This document shows positions 5,047 through 31,954 of a stretch of 33,479 nt of DNA, piece by piece. The position numbers and the translations under genes were made by a program. The stretch is from an uncultured Alphaproteobacteria bacterium (GTDB lineage Bacteria; Pseudomonadota; Alphaproteobacteria; Rs-D84; CACZYB01), in the NCBI GenBank assembly GCA_944390685.1, contig CALXQL010000006.1, positions 88,108 to 121,586 on the forward strand, given 5' to 3'. Every line of letters begins with the position of its first letter. Within the stretch, counting starts at the first letter, position 1. The notes below the pieces were generated by a model that did not search any database, was not told where the DNA came from, and saw only the letters and a list, made by a program, of their open reading frames with translations.

Positions 5047-5629
5047 TGATATTCAAAATTTGATTAAAGCATTATCTAAAATCCAAGGTTTTGGAAATAG
5101 GTCTGCTATACGTGCAACTATAAACCTTATATCTAATAGAGAAGAAAAAATCGCTCCTTTGATTGAGGCTTTAAATAATGTATATAATAATATAAAAACT
5201 TGTCCTATCTGTGGTAATTTTGATACAGTGGTTCCTTGTTCAATTTGCCAAGATGAAAAAAGAAATTCTAAAATCATTTGTGTGGTTAGTGATATTTCCT
5301 CTTTATGGGCTATGGAAAGAGGTAATATTTTTGATGGAAAATATCATATAACAGGTGGAATTTTATCCGCAATTAATGGTATTGAACCTGATGATTTAAA
5401 TCTTGCTTCCCTTAAAAATAGAGTTATAAATGAAAATGTGGAAGAAGTGATTTTGGCTCTTCCTGCAACAATTGATGCAAAAATTACTTCTCATTATATT
5501 ATAAATTTATTAAAAGATACAAATGTAAAGATTACTGAACTTGCACATGGGGTTCCTCTTGGTGGGGAATTGGATTATTTAGATGAAGGAACCATTGGGG
5601 AAGCAATAAAACAAAGAAAACTTATCTAG
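5033..5629 (+). CDS. recR: Recombination mediator protein RecR
   Basis: A 198-aa protein of the RecFOR pathway that helps load RecA on gapped DNA. Visible parts: N-terminal helix-hairpin-helix with IQGFGNRSA (17-25), a four-cysteine zinc finger (C57, C60, C69, C72), a Toprim domain with VVSDISSLWAMER, and the highly typical C-terminal HGVPLGGELDYLDEGTI. Length is normal. It starts inside the end of the second nucleotidyltransferase gene, a context unlike the usual dnaX-ybaB-recR order. Its stop is only about 10 bases before the -35 box of the next promoter and no separate terminator is seen, so readthrough into the leader RNA is likely. Confidence 0.97.
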   Translation: MQKSDDIQNLIKALSKIQGFGNRSAIRATINLISNREEKIAPLIEALNNVYNNIKTCPICGNFDTVVPCSICQDEKRNSKIICVVSDISSLWAMERGNIFDGKYHITGGILSAINGIEPDDLNLASLKNRVINENVEEVILALPATIDAKITSHYIINLLKDTNVKITELAHGVPLGGELDYLDEGTIGEAIKQRKLI

Positions 5630-5638
5630 TCTTTTCTA

Positions 5639-5667
5639 TTTACAATCAAAAAAAAATTTGCTATATT
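5639..5667 (+). promoter_or_regulatory. Promoter of cassette A leader RNA
   Basis: TTTACA, a 17-base spacer and TATATT, giving a start near 5674. The same boxes, spacer length and A-rich spacer recur in the inverted copy at 17655-17683. Conservation between the copies supports a real promoter. Confidence 0.8.
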
Positions 5668-5673
5668 GGTGTT

Positions 5674-5954
5674 TAGATATAGTTGATAGACTATGTTTAG
5701 TATCAGTGATGAACGATACGGAGCCATGAACAGCTCTCAGCTAATGGTGGTATGATGAAATGATACCTTGTGGTATCTTTTTTTGTATCTATACCCCCAG
5801 CCTTTTTATGGTTGGGGAGTCTGTGCCATACAATAGGAATATGATTTATTTTTATATCTTATATTCTAAAAACACAGAGGTTTACATTAGCAAACTGTTC
5901 AACTGCCCGGCCGTTGTCCTGATATGTGGGATTATAAAAAAAGGGTGAACGAAC
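5674..5954 (+). ncRNA. Structured leader RNA, copy A (upstream of secreted Cys-rich / Gly-rich genes)
   Basis: About 280 non-coding bases lie between the promoter and the first gene. Hairpin P1 is GTATC (5700-5704) with GATAC (5715-5719). P2 follows at once with GAGC (5721-5724) and GCTC (5733-5736). Next is a terminator-like stem (5762-5784), and then P3, CCCCAGCC (5795-5802) with GGTTGGGG (5810-5817). The last 70 bases, with CAACTGCCCG and a GTCC...GGAT stem, are also shared with copy B. The order P1-P2-P3 recurs in three leaders of this window, and the paired positions change in compensating ways (P3 AGCC/GGTT, AATC/GGTT, AACC/GGTT). Likely an attenuating leader or an sRNA of about 110 nt with readthrough. 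The family is unrecognised. Confidence 0.72.
5762..5784 (+). terminator. Internal intrinsic terminator / attenuator in leader A
   Basis: GATACC, loop TTGT, GGTATC, then seven T. Copy B has GATACT...AGTATC at the same place, so a C-G pair is replaced by T-A while the stem and T run are kept. The 5' arm repeats the GATAC of P1, so GTATC at 5700 could pair with either. It may terminate recR readthrough, attenuate the downstream genes, or both. Confidence 0.75.
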
Positions 5955-6356
5955 ATGATGAAATTCAAAAGAATGTCTTTGATTTCATGTATTTTATGCA
6001 TGGGATTTGCAAATATATCTATGGGCGCAACGGAAGCTCAACTTAAATCAGCACTTCAAAAGTATGGTGTACCAAAGGCAAGTGATTGTGGAACAATCAA
6101 TGAGGCTCATTATAATGGATCAGCCCCAGAATGCCAGGAATTCGGTATGTTTTATGATAAGCCAAACAGAAGATGTGATGTATGTCCAATTGGAACTGCC
6201 ACTAATTCAAAAACTGATACTGCATGTAAAACTATTGTCTGTCCTAATGGTAATGTTGGAACAATCATAAATGATGGTAAATGTCCCGCAGGTTATATTT
6301 TGCAACAAATAACTGGGGGAAGTTGTCCAGCGGGAAGTATTTTAACAAAAATGTAA
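5955..6356 (+). CDS. Small secreted Cys-rich protein, cassette A
   Basis: A 133-aa protein of unknown function. Residues 1-24 form a signal peptide with a likely cut after SMGA. The mature part begins TEAQLKSALQKYGV, then has conserved cysteines in the patterns DCGTINEAHYNGS, ECQEFGMFYD, RRCDVCPIGTAT, CPNG and CPAGY, resembling the short CP.G..... repeats of GCC2/GCC3-like extracellular modules. It is paralogous along its length to 16976-17377. The start is chosen because AGGG lies nine bases before the first ATG, the same geometry as in the paralogue. It sits between the leader RNA and a larger secreted protein with the same kind of CPAG repeats, so the pair probably acts together at the cell surface. 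Confidence 0.85.
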   Translation: MMKFKRMSLISCILCMGFANISMGATEAQLKSALQKYGVPKASDCGTINEAHYNGSAPECQEFGMFYDKPNRRCDVCPIGTATNSKTDTACKTIVCPNGNVGTIINDGKCPAGYILQQITGGSCPAGSILTKM

Positions 6357-6363
6357 AATTTAT

Positions 6364-6401
6364 GGGGAAAGTTATGTTGTCCGATTACCTTCACTTTCCC
6401 C
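6364..6401 (+). promoter_or_regulatory. Conserved intercistronic hairpin, cassette A
   Basis: GGGGAAAGT (6364-6372) pairs with ACTTTCCCC (6393-6401) around a 20-base loop containing TTGTCC and TTA. Copy B has the same stem and a similar loop at 16929-16968. No long T run follows, so it may stabilise mRNA, partially terminate, or be bound by a regulator rather than be a plain terminator. Confidence 0.6.
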
Positions 6402-6445
6402 TCCCTATTTTAAATTAAGTGAACGAACAAAGAAAGGAGAAAAAT

Positions 6446-7573
6446 ATGAAACTAAATAAAAAACTGGTTATATTGGGAGTTGGAATTGCCACCTCAACGG
6501 GGGCATTAGCACAAACATTTTATCAGTGTATGCCATGTCCTGCAGGTAGTTTTGCAAGTGGGGGTAAGTGCCTGAAATGTCCTGCGGGTAAATATTGCCC
6601 TACTGGGACATCTAATCCAATTACTTGTCCATCTGGTAGTTATTGCCCAGCAAATTCATCAACACCATTGGCATGTATGACAAATACATACTCTTCATCT
6701 GGAGCATCTAGATGTATTTCCTTAAGAGAATTATCTCAAAGTAACTTTACACAAATTGCAAATGCTTCTGCAGGAAGTTCATCATGCCCAACCGGCATAC
6801 TTGGATCAGGATTGTATTTAGTTAGGTTAAGAGGTGGAAAAGGTGGAAATGGTGGAAATCAAGGTGGTAGGGGACAAACAGGTGCTAGTGGTGGAATATT
6901 AAATTATTTATTTTACCTTTCACCAATTGCAACATATCAACTTTGCGCTGGTGCAAATGGTCAAGATGGTGTTGGTGGTGGATATGAAACAGGTGGTGGT
7001 GGTGGTGGTTCATGGTTAAAACTTAATTTGGCTGGAGAGGATTATTATTTTGCCGCAGGTGGTGGTGGTGGTGGTGGGTCTTATCATTCAGGTGGTGGTG
7101 GCGGTGGTTGTATTGGTGGTGGTGGTAGTGGTGGTGGTTCACCAGGTGGTGATGGTATACATTCTGGTGAAGGTGGAAGAAGTGGTCCGTATGCTGGTGG
7201 TGCTTATGCTCCCGATAGGTATGCACCTGGTAAAGGTGGTAAAGGATTAAATAATGGTTCAGATGGAAAAGATATTATTTCAAACCAACCAGGTGGTGGT
7301 GGTGGTGGTGGTGGTGGTAGTGGTGGTCGTGGAGCAACTTATAATGGTAATGATATTGCAGGTGGTGCAGGATACTCAATTAGTTTAAATATAATAGATA
7401 ATATAAGCAATCTATCAGATAAAACAATTAAATGTGGTGGTTATGGTGGTGATGGATACACCAATATGCCATCTCGTCTATCGCCAACATCGGGAACCGC
7501 TTCCCACGAATCAAATGCTTCAAGCATTTCCGCCTGTGGGTCGTCGTGTGCGATATTATATAAACTTAATTAA
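6446..7573 (+). CDS. Secreted Cys-rich / glycine-rich surface protein, cassette A
   Basis: A 375-aa secreted protein. The signal peptide MKLNKKLVILGVGIATSTG ends at ALA-QTF (about residue 23). Residues 24-95 hold repeated CP.G.YCP.G cysteine modules like GCC2/GCC3 or EGF-type extracellular repeats. From about 125 a long glycine-rich domain runs to the end, with alternating conserved blocks (LRGGKGGNGG, YQLCAGANGQDG, GGGGGGSWLKLN, YYFAAGGGGGG) as in the Gly-rich domain of some extracellular proteins. The C-terminus ASHESNAS...LYKLN is shared with the paralogue at 15712-16845. An upstream in-frame ATG at 6419 is rejected because AAAGGAG directly precedes 6446. A structural or adhesive surface role is inference. 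Nearly all glycines use GGT, producing codon-level repeats. Confidence 0.87.
   Translation: MKLNKKLVILGVGIATSTGALAQTFYQCMPCPAGSFASGGKCLKCPAGKYCPTGTSNPITCPSGSYCPANSSTPLACMTNTYSSSGASRCISLRELSQSNFTQIANASAGSSSCPTGILGSGLYLVRLRGGKGGNGGNQGGRGQTGASGGILNYLFYLSPIATYQLCAGANGQDGVGGGYETGGGGGGSWLKLNLAGEDYYFAAGGGGGGGSYHSGGGGGGCIGGGGSGGGSPGGDGIHSGEGGRSGPYAGGAYAPDRYAPGKGGKGLNNGSDGKDIISNQPGGGGGGGGGSGGRGATYNGNDIAGGAGYSISLNIIDNISNLSDKTIKCGGYGGDGYTNMPSRLSPTSGTASHESNASSISACGSSCAILYKLN
7292..7318 (+). repeat. (GGT)9 trinucleotide repeat within Gly-rich coding region
   Basis: Nine uninterrupted GGT codons; shorter runs of six occur at 6992-7009 and 7058-7075. Length change by slippage would stay in frame and change only the number of glycines. 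The paralogue has runs of five or fewer. Confidence 0.9.
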
Positions 7574-7589
7574 TATAACATTAAAAAAT

Positions 7590-7615
7590 CCCCCTCAAGT
7601 GAGGGGGTGATTTTT
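7590..7615 (+). terminator. Intrinsic terminator after cassette A
   Basis: CCCCCTC, loop AAGT, GAGGGGG, then TGATTTTT. A run of A on the 5' side makes it partly bidirectional. It ends at the 3' end of the convergent tRNA-Val gene. Confidence 0.85.
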
Positions 7616-15682: not shown

Positions 15683-15713
15683 AAAATTCCCCCGAAACCG
15701 GGGGATTTTTTTT
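15683..15713. terminator. Bidirectional intrinsic terminator between mreB and cassette B
   Basis: CCCCCG, loop AAAC, CGGGGG, with six A before and eight T after, so it can end transcripts from both sides. The stop of the convergent Gly-rich gene lies in the T run. Confidence 0.88.
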
Positions 15714-16845
15714 AAATGTTAAGTTTATATAACTTTGCTGTACTACCATACGGTCTAGAGATATTAGGTGCATTATCTTCATGTGATGCAGAAGCTGAAT
15801 TTCCATCACCTCCACCAAACCTTTTAGTAATTCTTGAGGTAGTTTTATAACCATTTATTATATTTATTGTAACAGCATCAGAAGCCCTACCTCCAGCAAT
15901 AGTTAATCCAAAAAAATAACTACTTGTTGTAGTTCCAGAATAGCTACCACCACCACCAGAACCACCGCCCCCTGCATGATAACTCTTATTTGAAGAGCCA
16001 TTATGTCCATTAGTTAATCCTTGTCCTCCTCTTCCTCCGAAAGTTTCGCCGTTACTAATAGTACCACCAGTTCCACCTGCATAAGGACCACTGCTTCCAC
16101 CTTTAGAACCATTATATTTTAAAGTGGCTGCACCTCCACCACCTCCTCCTATACCACCACCTGAACCAGCTCCTCCTTTTATTTCATCTGGATTATCATT
16201 TCCAGTACCATTTTCACCTATATCAAAACCTCTTGCCCCACCCGCAACAAAATAATAATCTTTTCCACCAAAATTAAGTTTTAACCATGATCCACCACCA
16301 CCACCACTAGCTCCATGACACTTAGGGGTCCAACACCCATTGTCAGCCTCACCAACACAATAATCTCCATCACTACCAGCACAAATTTGATATGAGGCAG
16401 TTGATGGGACAAAAAATACATATCTTAGCTCTGCTCCACTTTTAGATGCCGCCCAGCATGCTCCCCTACTACGACCTCCTTCTAATTTAACTAAATACCA
16501 CCCTGGTTGAAGCGTTCCAATACGACATCCATTAGAAGCTTGACCATTTATTTCTGTAAAATTTTCATCTTTTAAATCACTCATTCTAAAACATTTTGTA
16601 TTACCTCCGTAATATCCGCTTGGACAGCATACAGAAGAGCCGGGGTATGAGTAAGTGCCACTTGGGCAAGCGATAGGTTTTGAACCGCTTGGGCAATAGT
16701 AATCTCTTTCGCATTGTTTACATTGCCCATCTTTTGAATAAGTTCCGGCTGGGCATGGCAAGCATTGATAAAATGTTTGTGCCAATGCTCCCGTTGAGGC
16801 GGTTAATCCCACCCCCAAGATTGCCAGTTTTTTATTTAGTTTCAT
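15712..16845 (-). CDS. Secreted Cys-rich / glycine-rich surface protein, cassette B
   Basis: A 377-aa paralogue of 6446-7573. The signal peptide MKLNKKLAILGVGLTASTG ends at ALA-QTFYQC. Cys modules (CPAGTYSKDGQC, CERDYYCPSG, CPSGTYSYPG) span about 27-80, and a Gly-rich domain runs from about 120 with extra cysteines around 158-176 that copy A lacks. The C-terminus ASHEDNAP...LYKLNI matches copy A. AAAGGAG precedes the ATG. Compared with copy A the glycine runs are shorter and less pure at DNA level, so the copies have diverged for some time or in different ways. Function unknown; an extracellular structural or adhesive role is inferred from composition and secretion. Confidence 0.87.
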   Translation of the reverse strand: MKLNKKLAILGVGLTASTGALAQTFYQCLPCPAGTYSKDGQCKQCERDYYCPSGSKPIACPSGTYSYPGSSVCCPSGYYGGNTKCFRMSDLKDENFTEINGQASNGCRIGTLQPGWYLVKLEGGRSRGACWAASKSGAELRYVFFVPSTASYQICAGSDGDYCVGEADNGCWTPKCHGASGGGGGSWLKLNFGGKDYYFVAGGARGFDIGENGTGNDNPDEIKGGAGSGGGIGGGGGGAATLKYNGSKGGSSGPYAGGTGGTISNGETFGGRGGQGLTNGHNGSSNKSYHAGGGGSGGGGSYSGTTTSSYFFGLTIAGGRASDAVTINIINGYKTTSRITKRFGGGDGNSASASHEDNAPNISRPYGSTAKLYKLNI

Positions 16846-16882
16846 TGTCTTCTCCTTTCTTTATTAGTTAATATTATTGGGA

Positions 16883-16918
16883 GAGGAAAAGTTTTGGTGA
16901 ACGAACGGACTTTTCCTC
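16883..16918 (-). promoter_or_regulatory. Second inverted repeat in the cassette B intercistronic gap
   Basis: GAGGAAAAGT (16883-16892) and ACTTTTCCTC (16909-16918) form a perfect 10-base stem around a 16-base loop holding GTGAACGAAC on the plus strand. Copy A has GTGAACGAAC at the matching gap on its coding strand but no such stem. Confidence 0.5.
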
Positions 16919-16928
16919 ATAACTGGGA

Positions 16929-16968
16929 GGGGAAAGCGAAGATAATGGACAACAAAGCAACTTTCCCC
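16929..16968 (-). promoter_or_regulatory. Conserved intercistronic hairpin, cassette B
   Basis: GGGGAAAG and CTTTCCCC close a 24-base loop that includes TTGTCC and TTA on the coding strand, as in copy A at 6364-6401. It lies directly after the small Cys-rich gene. Confidence 0.6.
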
Positions 16969-16975
16969 ATAAATT

Positions 16976-17377
16976 TTATAATTTGATTAACCTTGTCCCA
17001 TCTGGGCAATTGCCACCGGTAATTTGAAATAATCCATATCCATCTGGGCATAGTCCATCTCTTATAATTGTTCCACCATAGCCATCAGGACAGATTATAG
17101 GTTTACAAGAGGTATCGGTTTTAGAATCCGTTGCAGTACCAAGGGGACATTCCTCACATCTACGATTTTCTTTATCGTAATACATGCCTAAATATTGGCA
17201 TTCTGGTTTGGAGCCATTGAAATGCGCTTCATTTAATGTGCCACAATCCTTTGTGTAAGGGACACCATATTTTTGAAGTACTGATTGAAGTTGAGCTGTG
17301 GTTGCTGAATAACCTATATTTGAAAATCCCGTGCACAATATACACGAAACCATAATTGATTTTATGTTTCTTTTCAT
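16976..17377 (-). CDS. Small secreted Cys-rich protein, cassette B
   Basis: A 133-aa paralogue of 5955-6356 with equal length. Signal peptide of about 24 residues (MKRNIKSIMVSCILCTGFSN), then TTAQLQSVLQKYGV and the same cysteine spacing: DCGTLNEAHFNGS, ECQYLGMYYD, RRCEECPLGTATDSKT, CPDGYGGTII and CPDGT. Acidic and glycine changes (CPDGY for CPNGN) distinguish it from copy A. AGGG lies nine bases before the ATG, as in copy A. It is the first gene after leader RNA copy B and presumably cotranscribed with the Gly-rich gene that follows. Function unknown. Confidence 0.85.
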   Translation of the reverse strand: MKRNIKSIMVSCILCTGFSNIGYSATTAQLQSVLQKYGVPYTKDCGTLNEAHFNGSKPECQYLGMYYDKENRRCEECPLGTATDSKTDTSCKPIICPDGYGGTIIRDGLCPDGYGLFQITGGNCPDGTRLIKL

Positions 17378-17648
17378 GTTCGTTTACCCTCTTTTAATAA
17401 TCCCATATATCAGGATAGCGGTCGGGCAGTTCAACAATCAAATAAACGTATGATCTCATAGCTTTTAGAATATATGACTATATTCCTTTTGTATGACTAT
17501 GACTCCCCAACCACAAAAGATTGGGGGGCTTTGGATATAAAAAAAGATACTACAAGAGTATCATTTGAAAATATACCCCGTTTATTGAGCTGTTGAAGGC
17601 TCCGTATCGTTTATCACTGATACTAAATACAACTATTTGTTGTATCTG
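17378..17648 (-). ncRNA. Structured leader RNA, copy B
   Basis: Minus-strand leader of about 270 bases. P1 is at 17604-17623 (GTATC/GATAC), P2 at 17587-17602 (GAGC/GCTC) and the internal terminator at 17539-17562. P3 at 17505-17526 pairs CCCCAATC with GGTTGGGG. Relative to copy A the P1 and P2 stems are identical, the terminator changes one pair, and P3 changes GC to AT within its 5' arm while keeping pairing. The 3' part with AACTGCCCG and ATCC...GGAT is also kept. There is no open frame shared with copy A in this region, so it is non-coding. Confidence 0.72.
17539..17562 (-). terminator. Internal intrinsic terminator / attenuator in leader B
   Basis: On the minus strand GATACT, loop CTTGT, AGTATC, then seven T. 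Same position as in leader A, with one compensating base-pair change. Confidence 0.75.
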
Positions 17649-17654
17649 TTTTCC

Positions 17655-17683
17655 AATATAGCAAATTTTTTTTTGATTGTAAA
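17655..17683 (-). promoter_or_regulatory. Promoter of cassette B leader RNA
   Basis: Minus strand TTTACA, 17 bases, TATATT, same boxes and spacing as at 5639-5667. It is divergent from the secD promoter, 33 bases away. Confidence 0.8.
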
Positions 17684-17716
17684 TTGATTTTTATTTTTTA
17701 TTAGTTGATTAAATCC

Positions 17717-17745
17717 TTGCAAATTTCTTTTAGTTTTTGTAAAAT
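17717..17745 (+). promoter_or_regulatory. Promoter of secD
   Basis: TTGCAA, 17 bases, TAAAAT, about 33 bases upstream of the secD ATG; an AGGAG site lies before the ATG. Confidence 0.62.
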
Positions 17746-30102: not shown

Positions 30103-30480
30103 ATGAAAAAAATTTTATTTGTTTTAATAGGTATTTTATTCATCTATGCTTGTGATAATACAAAATCAGCTAATACAAAATTATCAAATGATTATATTTA
30201 CTTTTTTTATCATACTAATTGTATATATTGTCATAAAGCAATAAATTATATAAATAAAAAATATCCTTCATTGAATATGAAAATTCATAATATAGAAAAT
30301 CAAAATAGTTATAAGTTATTTATAGAATGTGCAACAAAATTCAATTTAGGTAATAATGTTGGAACTCCTTTATTATGTATGGGGGATAAATATATCATGG
30401 GATGGGGAGATGAATATGAAAAAAATTTTGATGATTATGTAAAACCTTTCCTTTATATATCATCAAAAAACCACCCTTAA
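30103..30480 (+). CDS. Thioredoxin/glutaredoxin-fold lipoprotein with CxxC
   Basis: A 125-aa lipoprotein: a short hydrophobic signal with lipobox IYAC (Cys17), then a thioredoxin-like fold with YFFYHTNCIYCHKAI, giving the redox pair C40-IY-C43, and the cis-proline region VGTPLLCMGD near 88. The final strand YIMGWGDEYEK resembles the last strand and helix of glutaredoxin-like proteins. It should act on thiols or disulfides on the outer face of the inner membrane or in the periplasm. GGAAG precedes the ATG. It sits opposite the tandem ArsR-like regulator. The substrate is unknown. Confidence 0.75.
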   Translation: MKKILFVLIGILFIYACDNTKSANTKLSNDYIYFFYHTNCIYCHKAINYINKKYPSLNMKIHNIENQNSYKLFIECATKFNLGNNVGTPLLCMGDKYIMGWGDEYEKNFDDYVKPFLYISSKNHP

Positions 30481-30513: not shown

Positions 30514-30750
30514 TTATTTTTTATATTTCCAACCACATTCTGCACAAGTAAACCCACTTGATTTTGTTGGGAAAAAAGCCGATATAAATAATGCTAACCC
30601 TATGATTGTACCAAAAACAGGTATAAAACTAAAAAATATTATACATATTGCTTTTAGTAAAATACTTATGAAACTATATGTATAATAATTTTCAAATTTT
30701 TTCATTGATTTACATTGTTCACAATATAATGATTTTATCTTCATCTTCAT
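30514..30750 (-). CDS. Small zinc-ribbon membrane protein downstream of leader RNA copy C
   Basis: A 78-aa protein with CEQC (9-12) near the N-terminus, two hydrophobic stretches (about 28-42 and 44-60, FISILLKAICIIFFSFIP and FGTIIGLALFISAFF), and CAEC (69-72) at the C-terminus. The two CxxC halves flank a membrane hairpin and could bind one zinc. AAAGGAG lies directly before ATG 30750; a longer in-frame start at 30804 lies inside the attenuator hairpin and has no ribosome site. It is preceded by the third copy of the leader RNA, which ends in a terminator-like stem about 35 bases before the ATG. Function unknown. Confidence 0.72.
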   Translation of the reverse strand: MKMKIKSLYCEQCKSMKKFENYYTYSFISILLKAICIIFFSFIPVFGTIIGLALFISAFFPTKSSGFTCAECGWKYKK

Positions 30751-30971
30751 TTTTACTCCTTTTAAATTGTTATCCAATCCAAAAGGAAAAACCATTTTTT
30801 TCAAATGGTTGGGGTCTAGGAAATGTCATTAAACACTATAAAGAAAATGACCGCCATATTATAATATAATGATGGCACCCCAACCAGAGGGTTGGGTTTA
30901 TAGCGTTTATTTATAGGAGTTTCCTAGGCTCCCGTATCCCTTTGGATACTAAATTTGCTATTTGCAAATCT
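30751..30971 (-). ncRNA. Structured leader RNA, copy C
   Basis: Minus-strand leader of about 220 bases. P1 is GTATCC/GGATAC (30934-30949, loop AAAG), longer by one pair than in copies A and B and with a different loop. P2 is GGAG/CTCC (30916-30932). P3 is CCCAACC/GGTTGGGG (30877-30897), followed by TGCCAT, which resembles GTGCCATAC after P3 in copy A. A further stem GCCAT...ATGGC lies at 30853-30876. The motif TTTAGTATC, then GATACGG and AGCC, is shared by all three copies, though this copy lacks the terminator between P2 and P3 and instead has one just before the gene. Expression of the zinc-ribbon gene must pass this hairpin. Confidence 0.68.
30784..30809 (-). terminator. Attenuator-type hairpin at the end of leader C
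   Basis: Minus strand AACCATTT, loop GAAAA, AAATGGTT, then TTT and a pyrimidine-rich tail. The 5' arm overlaps CCCCAACC (30806-30813), which is perfectly complementary to the 3' arm of P3 (30878-30885). Pairing with P3 would break this stem. Confidence 0.6.
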
Positions 30972-31108: not shown

Positions 31109-31954
31109 ATGAAAAATCATATTATTTTTTTATGTTTTTTAACAGCTTGCACATATAATACAAAATATGTTGAAAATCAAAATGCCTTTTGTGAGAAAAA
31201 AGATAACTTAAATTTTTGTTATGATAAAAATAATCTACCTATAACTGGTATCATTAATTTCAATAATGGTAAAATCATAGAATATGAAAATGGTTTACAA
31301 AATGGATTTTCAAAAGAATTTTATAAAGATGGAACATTAAAATCTCAAAAAGTTTTTAAAGATGGTAAATCTACTGGTATTGCAAAACAATATTATCAAA
31401 ATGGAAATTTATCAATGGAAACTTCATTACTTGATGATAATAACATTCTAATCAAAAAATATTATGAAAATGGCAATCTAAATTTTGATGGAACTATTAT
31501 TAATGGACAATTAAATGGGATATCAAAGCAATATGATCAAAATGGAAATCTAAACCTCATATTCACTTTTGAAAATGGAATATTAAATGGTCCTGTAAAA
31601 GAATTCTACTCTAATGGTAATCTTAAATCAATTGGAACTTTCAAAAATGGTAAAAAAGATAATATCCTTAAAGAATTTTATGAAAATGGGAATATCAAGT
31701 TTGAAGGATGCTTTAAAAATGATGATTTAAATGGTATTATGTATGAGTATTATCCCAATAATAAAATAAAACGAACTATTACTTATTTAAATGGTAAACC
31801 TAATGGAATTTCAAAAGAATTTTATGAAAACGGCAATATCAAGTTTGAAGCTATATTTAAAAATAGTATATTAGATGGTATTGCAAAAGAATTTTATAAA
31901 GATGGATCTTTAAAATCCCAAAAAAATTTTAAAGATGGTAAAGAAGTAAAATAA
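31109..31954 (+). CDS. MORN-repeat (YwqK-type) lipoprotein
   Basis: A 281-aa protein with a short lipoprotein signal (FLTAC, Cys14) and then about ten repeats of roughly 22-24 residues of the form NG.l.G..KEFY.nGnLK....FknGk, the MORN_2 / YwqK pattern. The first and last full units (EFYKDGTLKSQKVFKDGK and EFYKDGSLKSQKNFKDGK) are almost identical, pointing to recent repeat duplication. The YwqK name links the family to toxin-antitoxin annotations, but no toxin is seen here and a structural surface role is just as likely. It is convergent with the transporter gene, five bases away. Confidence 0.82.
   Translation: MKNHIIFLCFLTACTYNTKYVENQNAFCEKKDNLNFCYDKNNLPITGIINFNNGKIIEYENGLQNGFSKEFYKDGTLKSQKVFKDGKSTGIAKQYYQNGNLSMETSLLDDNNILIKKYYENGNLNFDGTIINGQLNGISKQYDQNGNLNLIFTFENGILNGPVKEFYSNGNLKSIGTFKNGKKDNILKEFYENGNIKFEGCFKNDDLNGIMYEYYPNNKIKRTITYLNGKPNGISKEFYENGNIKFEAIFKNSILDGIAKEFYKDGSLKSQKNFKDGKEVK

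What the first reader, a model, noticed from the sequence alone, without database searches (positions are those of the whole stretch)
30784..30897. Copy C contains a perfect alternative pairing that would switch its terminator
The P3 3' arm GGTTGGGG (minus strand, 30885-30878) can pair with CCCAACC just before it or with CCCCAACC at 30813-30806, eight perfect pairs. The second partner shares AACC with the 5' arm of the hairpin (30809-30789) that ends in a T-rich tract just before the zinc-ribbon gene. P3 closed permits termination; P3 opened and paired downstream blocks it. Such mutually exclusive stems are the hallmark of attenuation (established); that it operates here is inference.
Basis: partly seen in the sequence, partly recalled or inferred. 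Interest (0 to 1): 0.68.

Follow-up and report, generated by a model that had tools for sequence, protein, structure and literature searches.

The report
Three-strand RNA switch, C4-like leader family

Summary
On the minus strand O5 = GGTTGGGG (30885-30878) can pair upstream with CCCAACC (P3) or downstream with O3 = CCCCAACC (30814-30807; reader one base off). The last four bases of O3 are the foot of the T-tailed hairpin (30810-30790) before the zinc-ribbon ORF.

It is not chance. A model from the window's longer copies hits 125 of 142 genomes of the same alphaproteobacterial order, up to 27 copies each. Over 70 distinct triplets both partners of O5 change with it (G-C/C, A-T/T, T-G/A). In 62 of 99 copies a terminator uses exactly the last four bases of O3 (0.5% of shuffles).

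Two further strands (a', b') pair with upstream a1, b1, as in phage C4 antisense RNA. Xcc1- and C4-type loci repeat a1 (and, in C4, b1) at the ribosome-binding site; this order lacks that and has P3 plus an overlapping terminator.

Best reading: a C4-type module rewired into a transcription attenuator. Terminated is the predicted ground state. Termination itself and the trigger are inferred. A metal signal is not supported.

The parts
30951..30970 (-). 5' hairpin GATTTGCAAATAGCAAATTT of the leader
   Evidence: fold, coordinates; equivalent hairpin in G003
30934..30949 (-). hairpin P0 GTATCCAAAGGGATAC
   Evidence: matched in copies A and B
30916..30932 (-). hairpin P1 GGAG-CCTAGGAAA-CTCC whose loop carries a1
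   Evidence: same hairpin-with-a1 layout in the Xcc1-type loci
30920..30927 (-). a1 CTAGGAAA, complementary to a'
   Evidence: family test of a1:a'
30897..30907 (-). b1 AACGCTATAAA, complementary to b' (11 pairs, one G-T)
   Evidence: family test
30890..30896 (-). U3 CCCAACC, upstream partner of the shared strand (P3 5' arm)
   Evidence: covariation
30878..30885 (-). O5 GGTTGGGG, shared strand: P3 3' arm and outer-helix 5' strand
30853..30876 (-). P4 hairpin; lacks the A-rich internal loop conserved in the long copies
30825..30851 (-). P5 hairpin GTCATT..AATGAC with b' in its loop
   Evidence: P5 pairs
30832..30842 (-). b' TTTATAGTGTT
30816..30823 (-). a' TTTCCTAG
30807..30814 (-). O3 CCCCAACC, downstream partner (outer-helix 3' strand)
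30781..30810 (-). terminator-like hairpin and T-rich tail; first 4 bases shared with O3
30514..30750 (-). downstream ORF, 78-aa membrane protein with two CxxC motifs, SD at 30763-30756; no Pfam match
5725..5912 (+). long copy A: a1 5725-5733, first terminator-like hairpin with T7 5762-5784, U3 5794-5802, O5 5810-5817, a' 5895-5901, O3 5905-5912; before the 5955-6356 and gly-rich 6419-7573 genes
17420..17598 (-). long copy B: a1 17598-17590, first terminator-like hairpin 17562-17539, U3 17528-17519, O5 from 17512, O3 17427-17420; before 17377-16976 and gly-rich 16845-15712

Best explanation
Copy C is the leader RNA of the zinc-ribbon gene and a short member of a C4-type RNA family (nearest named family sRNA-Xcc1, RF02221). 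One strand, O5, has two mutually exclusive partners. OFF (predicted ground state): a1b1 pairs with a'b', O5 is held in hairpin P3, O3 is free, and the terminator whose foot is the last four bases of O3 forms. ON: O5 pairs with O3 (the outer helix of the Xcc1 core, with P5 formed and a' and b' exposed), which removes the foot of the terminator so that polymerase reads into the gene. Shown: the sequence elements, the three-strand covariation, the overlap with the terminator, the a1:a' and b1:b' complementarity, the relationship to sRNA-Xcc1, and the position directly before genes. Inferred: that RNA polymerase stops there, that the fold is switched in the cell, and the direction of control. The trigger is open; the likeliest are a processed C4-type RNA of the same locus that captures nascent a1b1, or a protein that binds the core.
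For: (1) R1, built from 17 long copies, hits 125/142 order genomes but only 16/289 across the class, three of them order members. (2) R2, built from alphaproteobacterial copies, has copy C at the right place and all 20 sRNA-Xcc1 loci as its 20 best hits in 89.5 kb; Rfam's own sRNA-Xcc1 model exceeds its cut-off at L113 and hits the order below its cut-off. (3) Three-strand covariation over 70 distinct triplets: O5:O3 488 Watson-Crick pairs vs 449.9 permuted, O5:U3 338 vs 289.7, 0 of 5000 permutations each; core pairs 98.3% formed, 26 of 28 with two-sided change, 0/500 shuffles. (4) Strict terminators after O3 in 79/99 copies (12% shuffled), overlapping O3 by exactly 4 nt in 62/99 (0.5%), against 0/20 Xcc1-type loci; the P3 partner is likewise above chance only in the alphaproteobacterial form. 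(5) a' pairs with its own upstream a1 in 85% (other copies' upstream 20%); b1:b' with at least 9 pairs in 56% vs 3%. (6) Terminator state favoured by 15 kcal/mol in copy C and about 10 in the median of 90 copies; forcing O5:O3 in copy C removes it. (7) An SD-led ORF follows in 85/93 copies, median 46 nt from O3, which leaves little room for a separate promoter after the terminator.
Against: No expression data. Copy C's terminator is weak (two G-C pairs). Copies A and B and several other copies of this genus have no T-run after O3. The overlap is only 4 bases. Copy C and G003 lack the conserved P4 internal loop, so they may have lost contact with any core-binding factor. Energies ignore pseudoknots, proteins and folding during transcription. 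Copy C alone does not reach any Rfam cut-off. No promoter-like site was found by the consensus scan on the minus strand before copy C. No a2/b2 target site is seen in the order, so a trans role is not evident.
Confidence: 0.68

Rival explanations
1. A stand-alone C4/Xcc1-type small RNA: the hairpin is simply its 3' end, O5:O3 is its mature fold, P3 is a processing or folding intermediate, and the gene behind it is expressed by constant leaky readthrough or not from this transcript.
For: sRNA-Xcc1 was isolated as an 88-nt RNA in Xanthomonas (PMC2996969), and C4 RNA is processed by RNase P at the 5' side of its stem (PMC5320573). The two short copies precede unrelated genes (zinc ribbon; bPH_2).
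Against: An SD-led ORF follows within 160 nt in 85/93 copies with a median of 46 nt; P3 and the 4-nt overlap are kept together and are absent where the output is at the SD.
Confidence: 0.17
2. Trans-acting antisense immunity as in phage P1: a processed core RNA binds other copies' transcripts through a' and b'.
For: Layout of a1b1 and a'b'; a' and b' differ from copy to copy.
Against: No second target at the SD in the order (35% vs 32% by chance); no other place in the own genome carries copy C's a1b1 pair.
Confidence: 0.08
3. A small-molecule or metal riboswitch.
For: Conserved unpaired bases in the P4 internal loop of the long copies; terminator output.
Against: No Rfam riboswitch match; downstream genes share no obvious metabolite or metal; copy C lacks the conserved loop.
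Confidence: 0.05
4. Chance complementarity of G/C-rich blocks in an AT-rich leader.
For: Only eight bases; similar words recur in the leader.
Against: Joint change of three strands and conservation over many genomes.
Confidence: 0.02

Closest known systems
sRNA-Xcc1 (Rfam RF02221; integron-cassette RNA of Xanthomonas, found widely in Proteobacteria)
   Same: In Xanthomonas it also lies upstream of a gene, symE (PMC12444791).
   Different: Xcc1-type loci lack the upstream P3 partner and the overlapping terminator; most repeat a1 next to the SD of the gene. Copy C itself scores below the Rfam cut-off.
C4 antisense RNA of phages P1/P7 (Rfam RF01695)
   Same: Order a1, b1, core with b' in a hairpin loop and a' before the 3' strand of the outer helix; RF01695 loci have a' complementary both upstream and at the SD in 10/10.
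   Different: Sequence models do not connect them (one hit of E 0.4). C4 acts at a ribosome-binding site (PMC5320573); here there is a terminator instead.
C4-like Group 1 sRNAs of Acinetobacter baumannii (PMC5320573)
   Same: Many chromosomal copies of a C4-type RNA in one genome, variable a'.
   Different: Described as sRNAs with unknown targets; no P3/terminator switch in the passages read.
Transcription attenuators and riboswitch expression platforms (general)
   Same: Shared strand, two exclusive helices, terminator foot occluded.
   Different: No leader peptide or known ligand; the alternative helix is part of a C4-type core.

Membership tests
sRNA-Xcc1 (RF02221) | Score above Rfam gathering cut-off (53 bits) | tested here: not met
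   Copy C: no RF02221 match even at E 10. Relatives in the order reach 50.7 bits. Class relative L113 exceeds the cut-off (56.2 bits).
sRNA-Xcc1 (RF02221) | Outer helix enclosing P4 and P5 | tested here: met
   Copy C matches R2 over its whole length; R2 finds all 20 RF02221 loci; pairs.
sRNA-Xcc1 (RF02221) | Mature RNA of about 88 nt | not testable with these tools
   Mapped in Xanthomonas (PMC2996969); no RNA data here.
C4 antisense RNA (RF01695) | Match to the C4 covariance model | tested here: not met
   No hit in the window or in the own genome.
C4 antisense RNA (RF01695) | a' and b' complementary to upstream a1 and b1 | tested here: met
   Copy C; family; C4 loci.
C4 antisense RNA (RF01695) | Second target a2b2 at the ribosome-binding site | tested here: not met
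   a' vs downstream 35%, shuffled 32%.
C4 antisense RNA (RF01695) | RNase P cleavage at the core's 5' end and trans action | not testable with these tools
   Needs RNA experiments.
Transcription attenuator | Mutually exclusive helices, one overlapping an intrinsic terminator | tested here: met
Transcription attenuator | Condition-dependent termination | not testable with these tools
   No transcription data for this organism.
Metal or metabolite riboswitch (known Rfam classes) | Match to a known class | tested here: not met

The most novel reading that the evidence does not exclude
A phage-type C4 antisense module was domesticated in an order of gut Alphaproteobacteria and multiplied to a dozen or more leaders per genome, each with its own a'/b' address. 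By adding a third strand (P3) and an overlapping terminator its output moved from blocking ribosome binding to switching transcription of secreted and surface proteins, with processed leader RNAs acting as copy-specific signals so that surface genes are switched individually.
Probability: 0.25. Interest if true: 0.82.

Novelty: new variant of a known kind. Interest (0 to 1): 0.63.

Why it matters
It turns a single eight-base pairing into a large regulatory RNA family that Rfam 15 does not list for these genomes. It shows that sRNA-Xcc1, treated in the literature as a trans-acting small RNA, sits inside a longer leader with the a1b1/a'b' layout of phage C4 RNA. It suggests one RNA module carrying two different outputs, ribosome-binding-site control in one group and a transcription terminator in another. 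The prediction can be tested in a test tube.

Tried and rejected
Metal or other known riboswitch: no Rfam match and no shared gene function. RalA, RT-4 and manA-II hits at copy C are far below their cut-offs and rejected as chance. Zinc-ribbon gene as the constant partner: its homologues are rare and none lies in another genome of the same genus. 6S, SRP, tmRNA, T-box, group I/II intron and IS110-type bridge RNA were considered from memory and dropped: no model match where one exists, and different layout. Trans target in the own genome for copy C's a'b': none found. Sequence homology with C4 by covariance model: not shown; kept as 'works like'. The first covariation script had an indexing error (first part) and was redone; only the b1:b' figures are used.

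Full report
1. Observation. On the minus strand the leader of the small zinc-ribbon ORF (30750-30514) reads, 5' to 3': hairpin 30970-30951, hairpin P0 30949-30934, hairpin P1 30932-30916, strand b1 30907-30897, CCCAACC (U3, 30896-30890), CTCT, GGTTGGGG (O5, 30885-30878), P4, P5, strand a' 30823-30816, CCCCAACC (O3, 30814-30807), hairpin AACCATTT-GAAAA-AAATGGTT (30810-30790) with a T-rich tail, SD, ATG. The leader folds with z = -6.9 against shuffles.

2. Copy C is one of many. DNA searches in the same genus found a relative in G003 and, with copy A, numerous longer copies. The G003 copy keeps O5 and O3, and its terminator and a1:a' helices carry compensating changes, but it precedes a bacterial PH-domain protein, not a zinc ribbon. 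A model (R1) built from 17 long copies found matches in 125 of 142 genomes of the order, up to 27 per genome, where 27 is also the number of candidates scored, and in only 16 of 289 genomes drawn from the class. Named records with the core motif are alphaproteobacterial MAGs, largely from gut samples, many of them ruminant (titles). RNAalifold on the MAFFT alignment of the 17 copies already chose O5:O3 as the outer helix.

3. Kinship. The R1 hit in L113 is sRNA-Xcc1 (RF02221) above Rfam's cut-off, and the RF02221 model hits 25 of 41 order genomes below its cut-off at the same kind of place. RF02221 loci over the phylum have the same upstream parts: a hairpin whose loop (a1) is complementary to the strand before O3 (a'), and a strand b1 complementary to the P5 loop (b'). 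A second model (R2) made from alphaproteobacterial copies, including the window's copies A and B but not copy C, ranks all 20 RF02221 loci first in 89.5 kb and finds copy C in register (23 bits, E 0.0021 for the window). R2's alignment includes L113, the one class member that is itself sRNA-Xcc1, so the cross-detection is not fully independent.

4. Layout of C4. RF01695 (C4) loci fetched for comparison show a1 b1 - core with b' and a' - a2 b2 at the SD; a' is complementary to both sides in 10 of 10 (shuffles 12-15%). The literature describes C4 as processed by RNase P and blocking a ribosome-binding site with b' while a' gives specificity (PMC5320573). Xcc1-type loci have a1 in 20/20 and a2 in 75% (16% shuffled); the order has a1 in 85% and no a2 above chance. 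Sequence models do not link the order to C4 beyond one hit of E 0.4, so 'works like C4' is supported and 'is C4' is not.

5. The switch. Over 70 distinct triplets O5:O3 and O5:U3 Watson-Crick pairs exceed every one of 5000 permutations; at O5 position 8, G goes mostly with C and C, A with T and T, T with G or A on both sides. P3 stems average 7.95 pairs in the order against 5.76 shuffled, and are at chance (5.5 vs 5.53) in Xcc1-type loci. Strict terminators follow O3 in 79 of 99 copies (12% shuffled), share exactly four bases with O3 in 62 of 99 (0.5%), and occur in 0 of 20 Xcc1-type loci. P3 and the overlapping terminator therefore come together, in place of a2 at the SD. Nested folding puts the terminator state (P3 closed, a1b1 paired with a'b') 15 kcal/mol below the O5:O3 state in copy C, 11 in G003 and about 10 in the median of 90 copies. 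Permutations do not remove relatedness of copies, but the three-way changes at several positions are hard to explain otherwise.

6. What it controls. 85 of 93 copies have an SD-led ORF within 160 nt, median 46 nt. 66 of 85 have a hydrophobic N-terminus by a simple hydropathy test, against 5 of 24 other genes of the window and 1 of 19 genes behind Xcc1-type loci, several of which look like phage antirepressors (reading of the translations; not run against a family library). This is a rough measure, not a signal-peptide prediction.

7. Limits. No RNA was seen. Copy C's terminator is weak and some copies of the genus, including A and B, lack a T-run. The P4 internal loop kept in the long copies is missing in copy C and G003. 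The direction of the switch follows from energies and overlap only. Permutation and shuffle controls treat copies as independent. Absence of earlier descriptions was checked only in the held paper library and Rfam 15.

8. Verdict. A real three-strand switch element, ordinary in parts (C4/Xcc1 core, terminator) and new in combination and spread: a new variant of a known kind.

Noticed in passing
window 5762-5784 (+) and 17562-17539 (-): Long copies A and B carry a further terminator-like hairpin with a T7 run between b1 and the core; C4 and Xcc1 loci have a similar hairpin with T-run at the same place. An early stop would release an a1b1 RNA.
   Followed up: partly
window 30490-30400 (-): R2 gives 26 bits (E 0.0004) over the end of the + strand ORF 30103-30480 and its hairpin CCACCC..GGGTGG; probably a terminator read on the other strand, but it scores above copy C.
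   Followed up: partly
window 5600-7600 and 15700-17720: Two inverted copies of a cassette: leader RNA, 133-aa secreted-looking protein, glycine-rich protein.
   Followed up: partly
L127-L146: sRNA-Xcc1, annotated as a trans-acting sRNA, appears throughout Proteobacteria as the 3' part of a leader with a1b1 upstream and often a2 at the SD of the next gene.
   Followed up: partly
L143 (downstream of 1590): The a2 copy sits in a hairpin CCGGC-CCTAGAAA-GCCGG with the same loop as the upstream P1 hairpin.
   Followed up: no
L085: The core pattern occurs in a contig binned as Gastranaerophilales; likely misbinned or transferred.
   Followed up: no
window 29988-29350 (-): Protein with an ArsR-type and a second MarR/TrmB-type winged helix.
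   Followed up: no
window 31109-31954 (+): Lipoprotein-like ORF whose DNA holds tandem repeats at 72-nt spacing, i.e. a 24-residue protein repeat.
   Followed up: no
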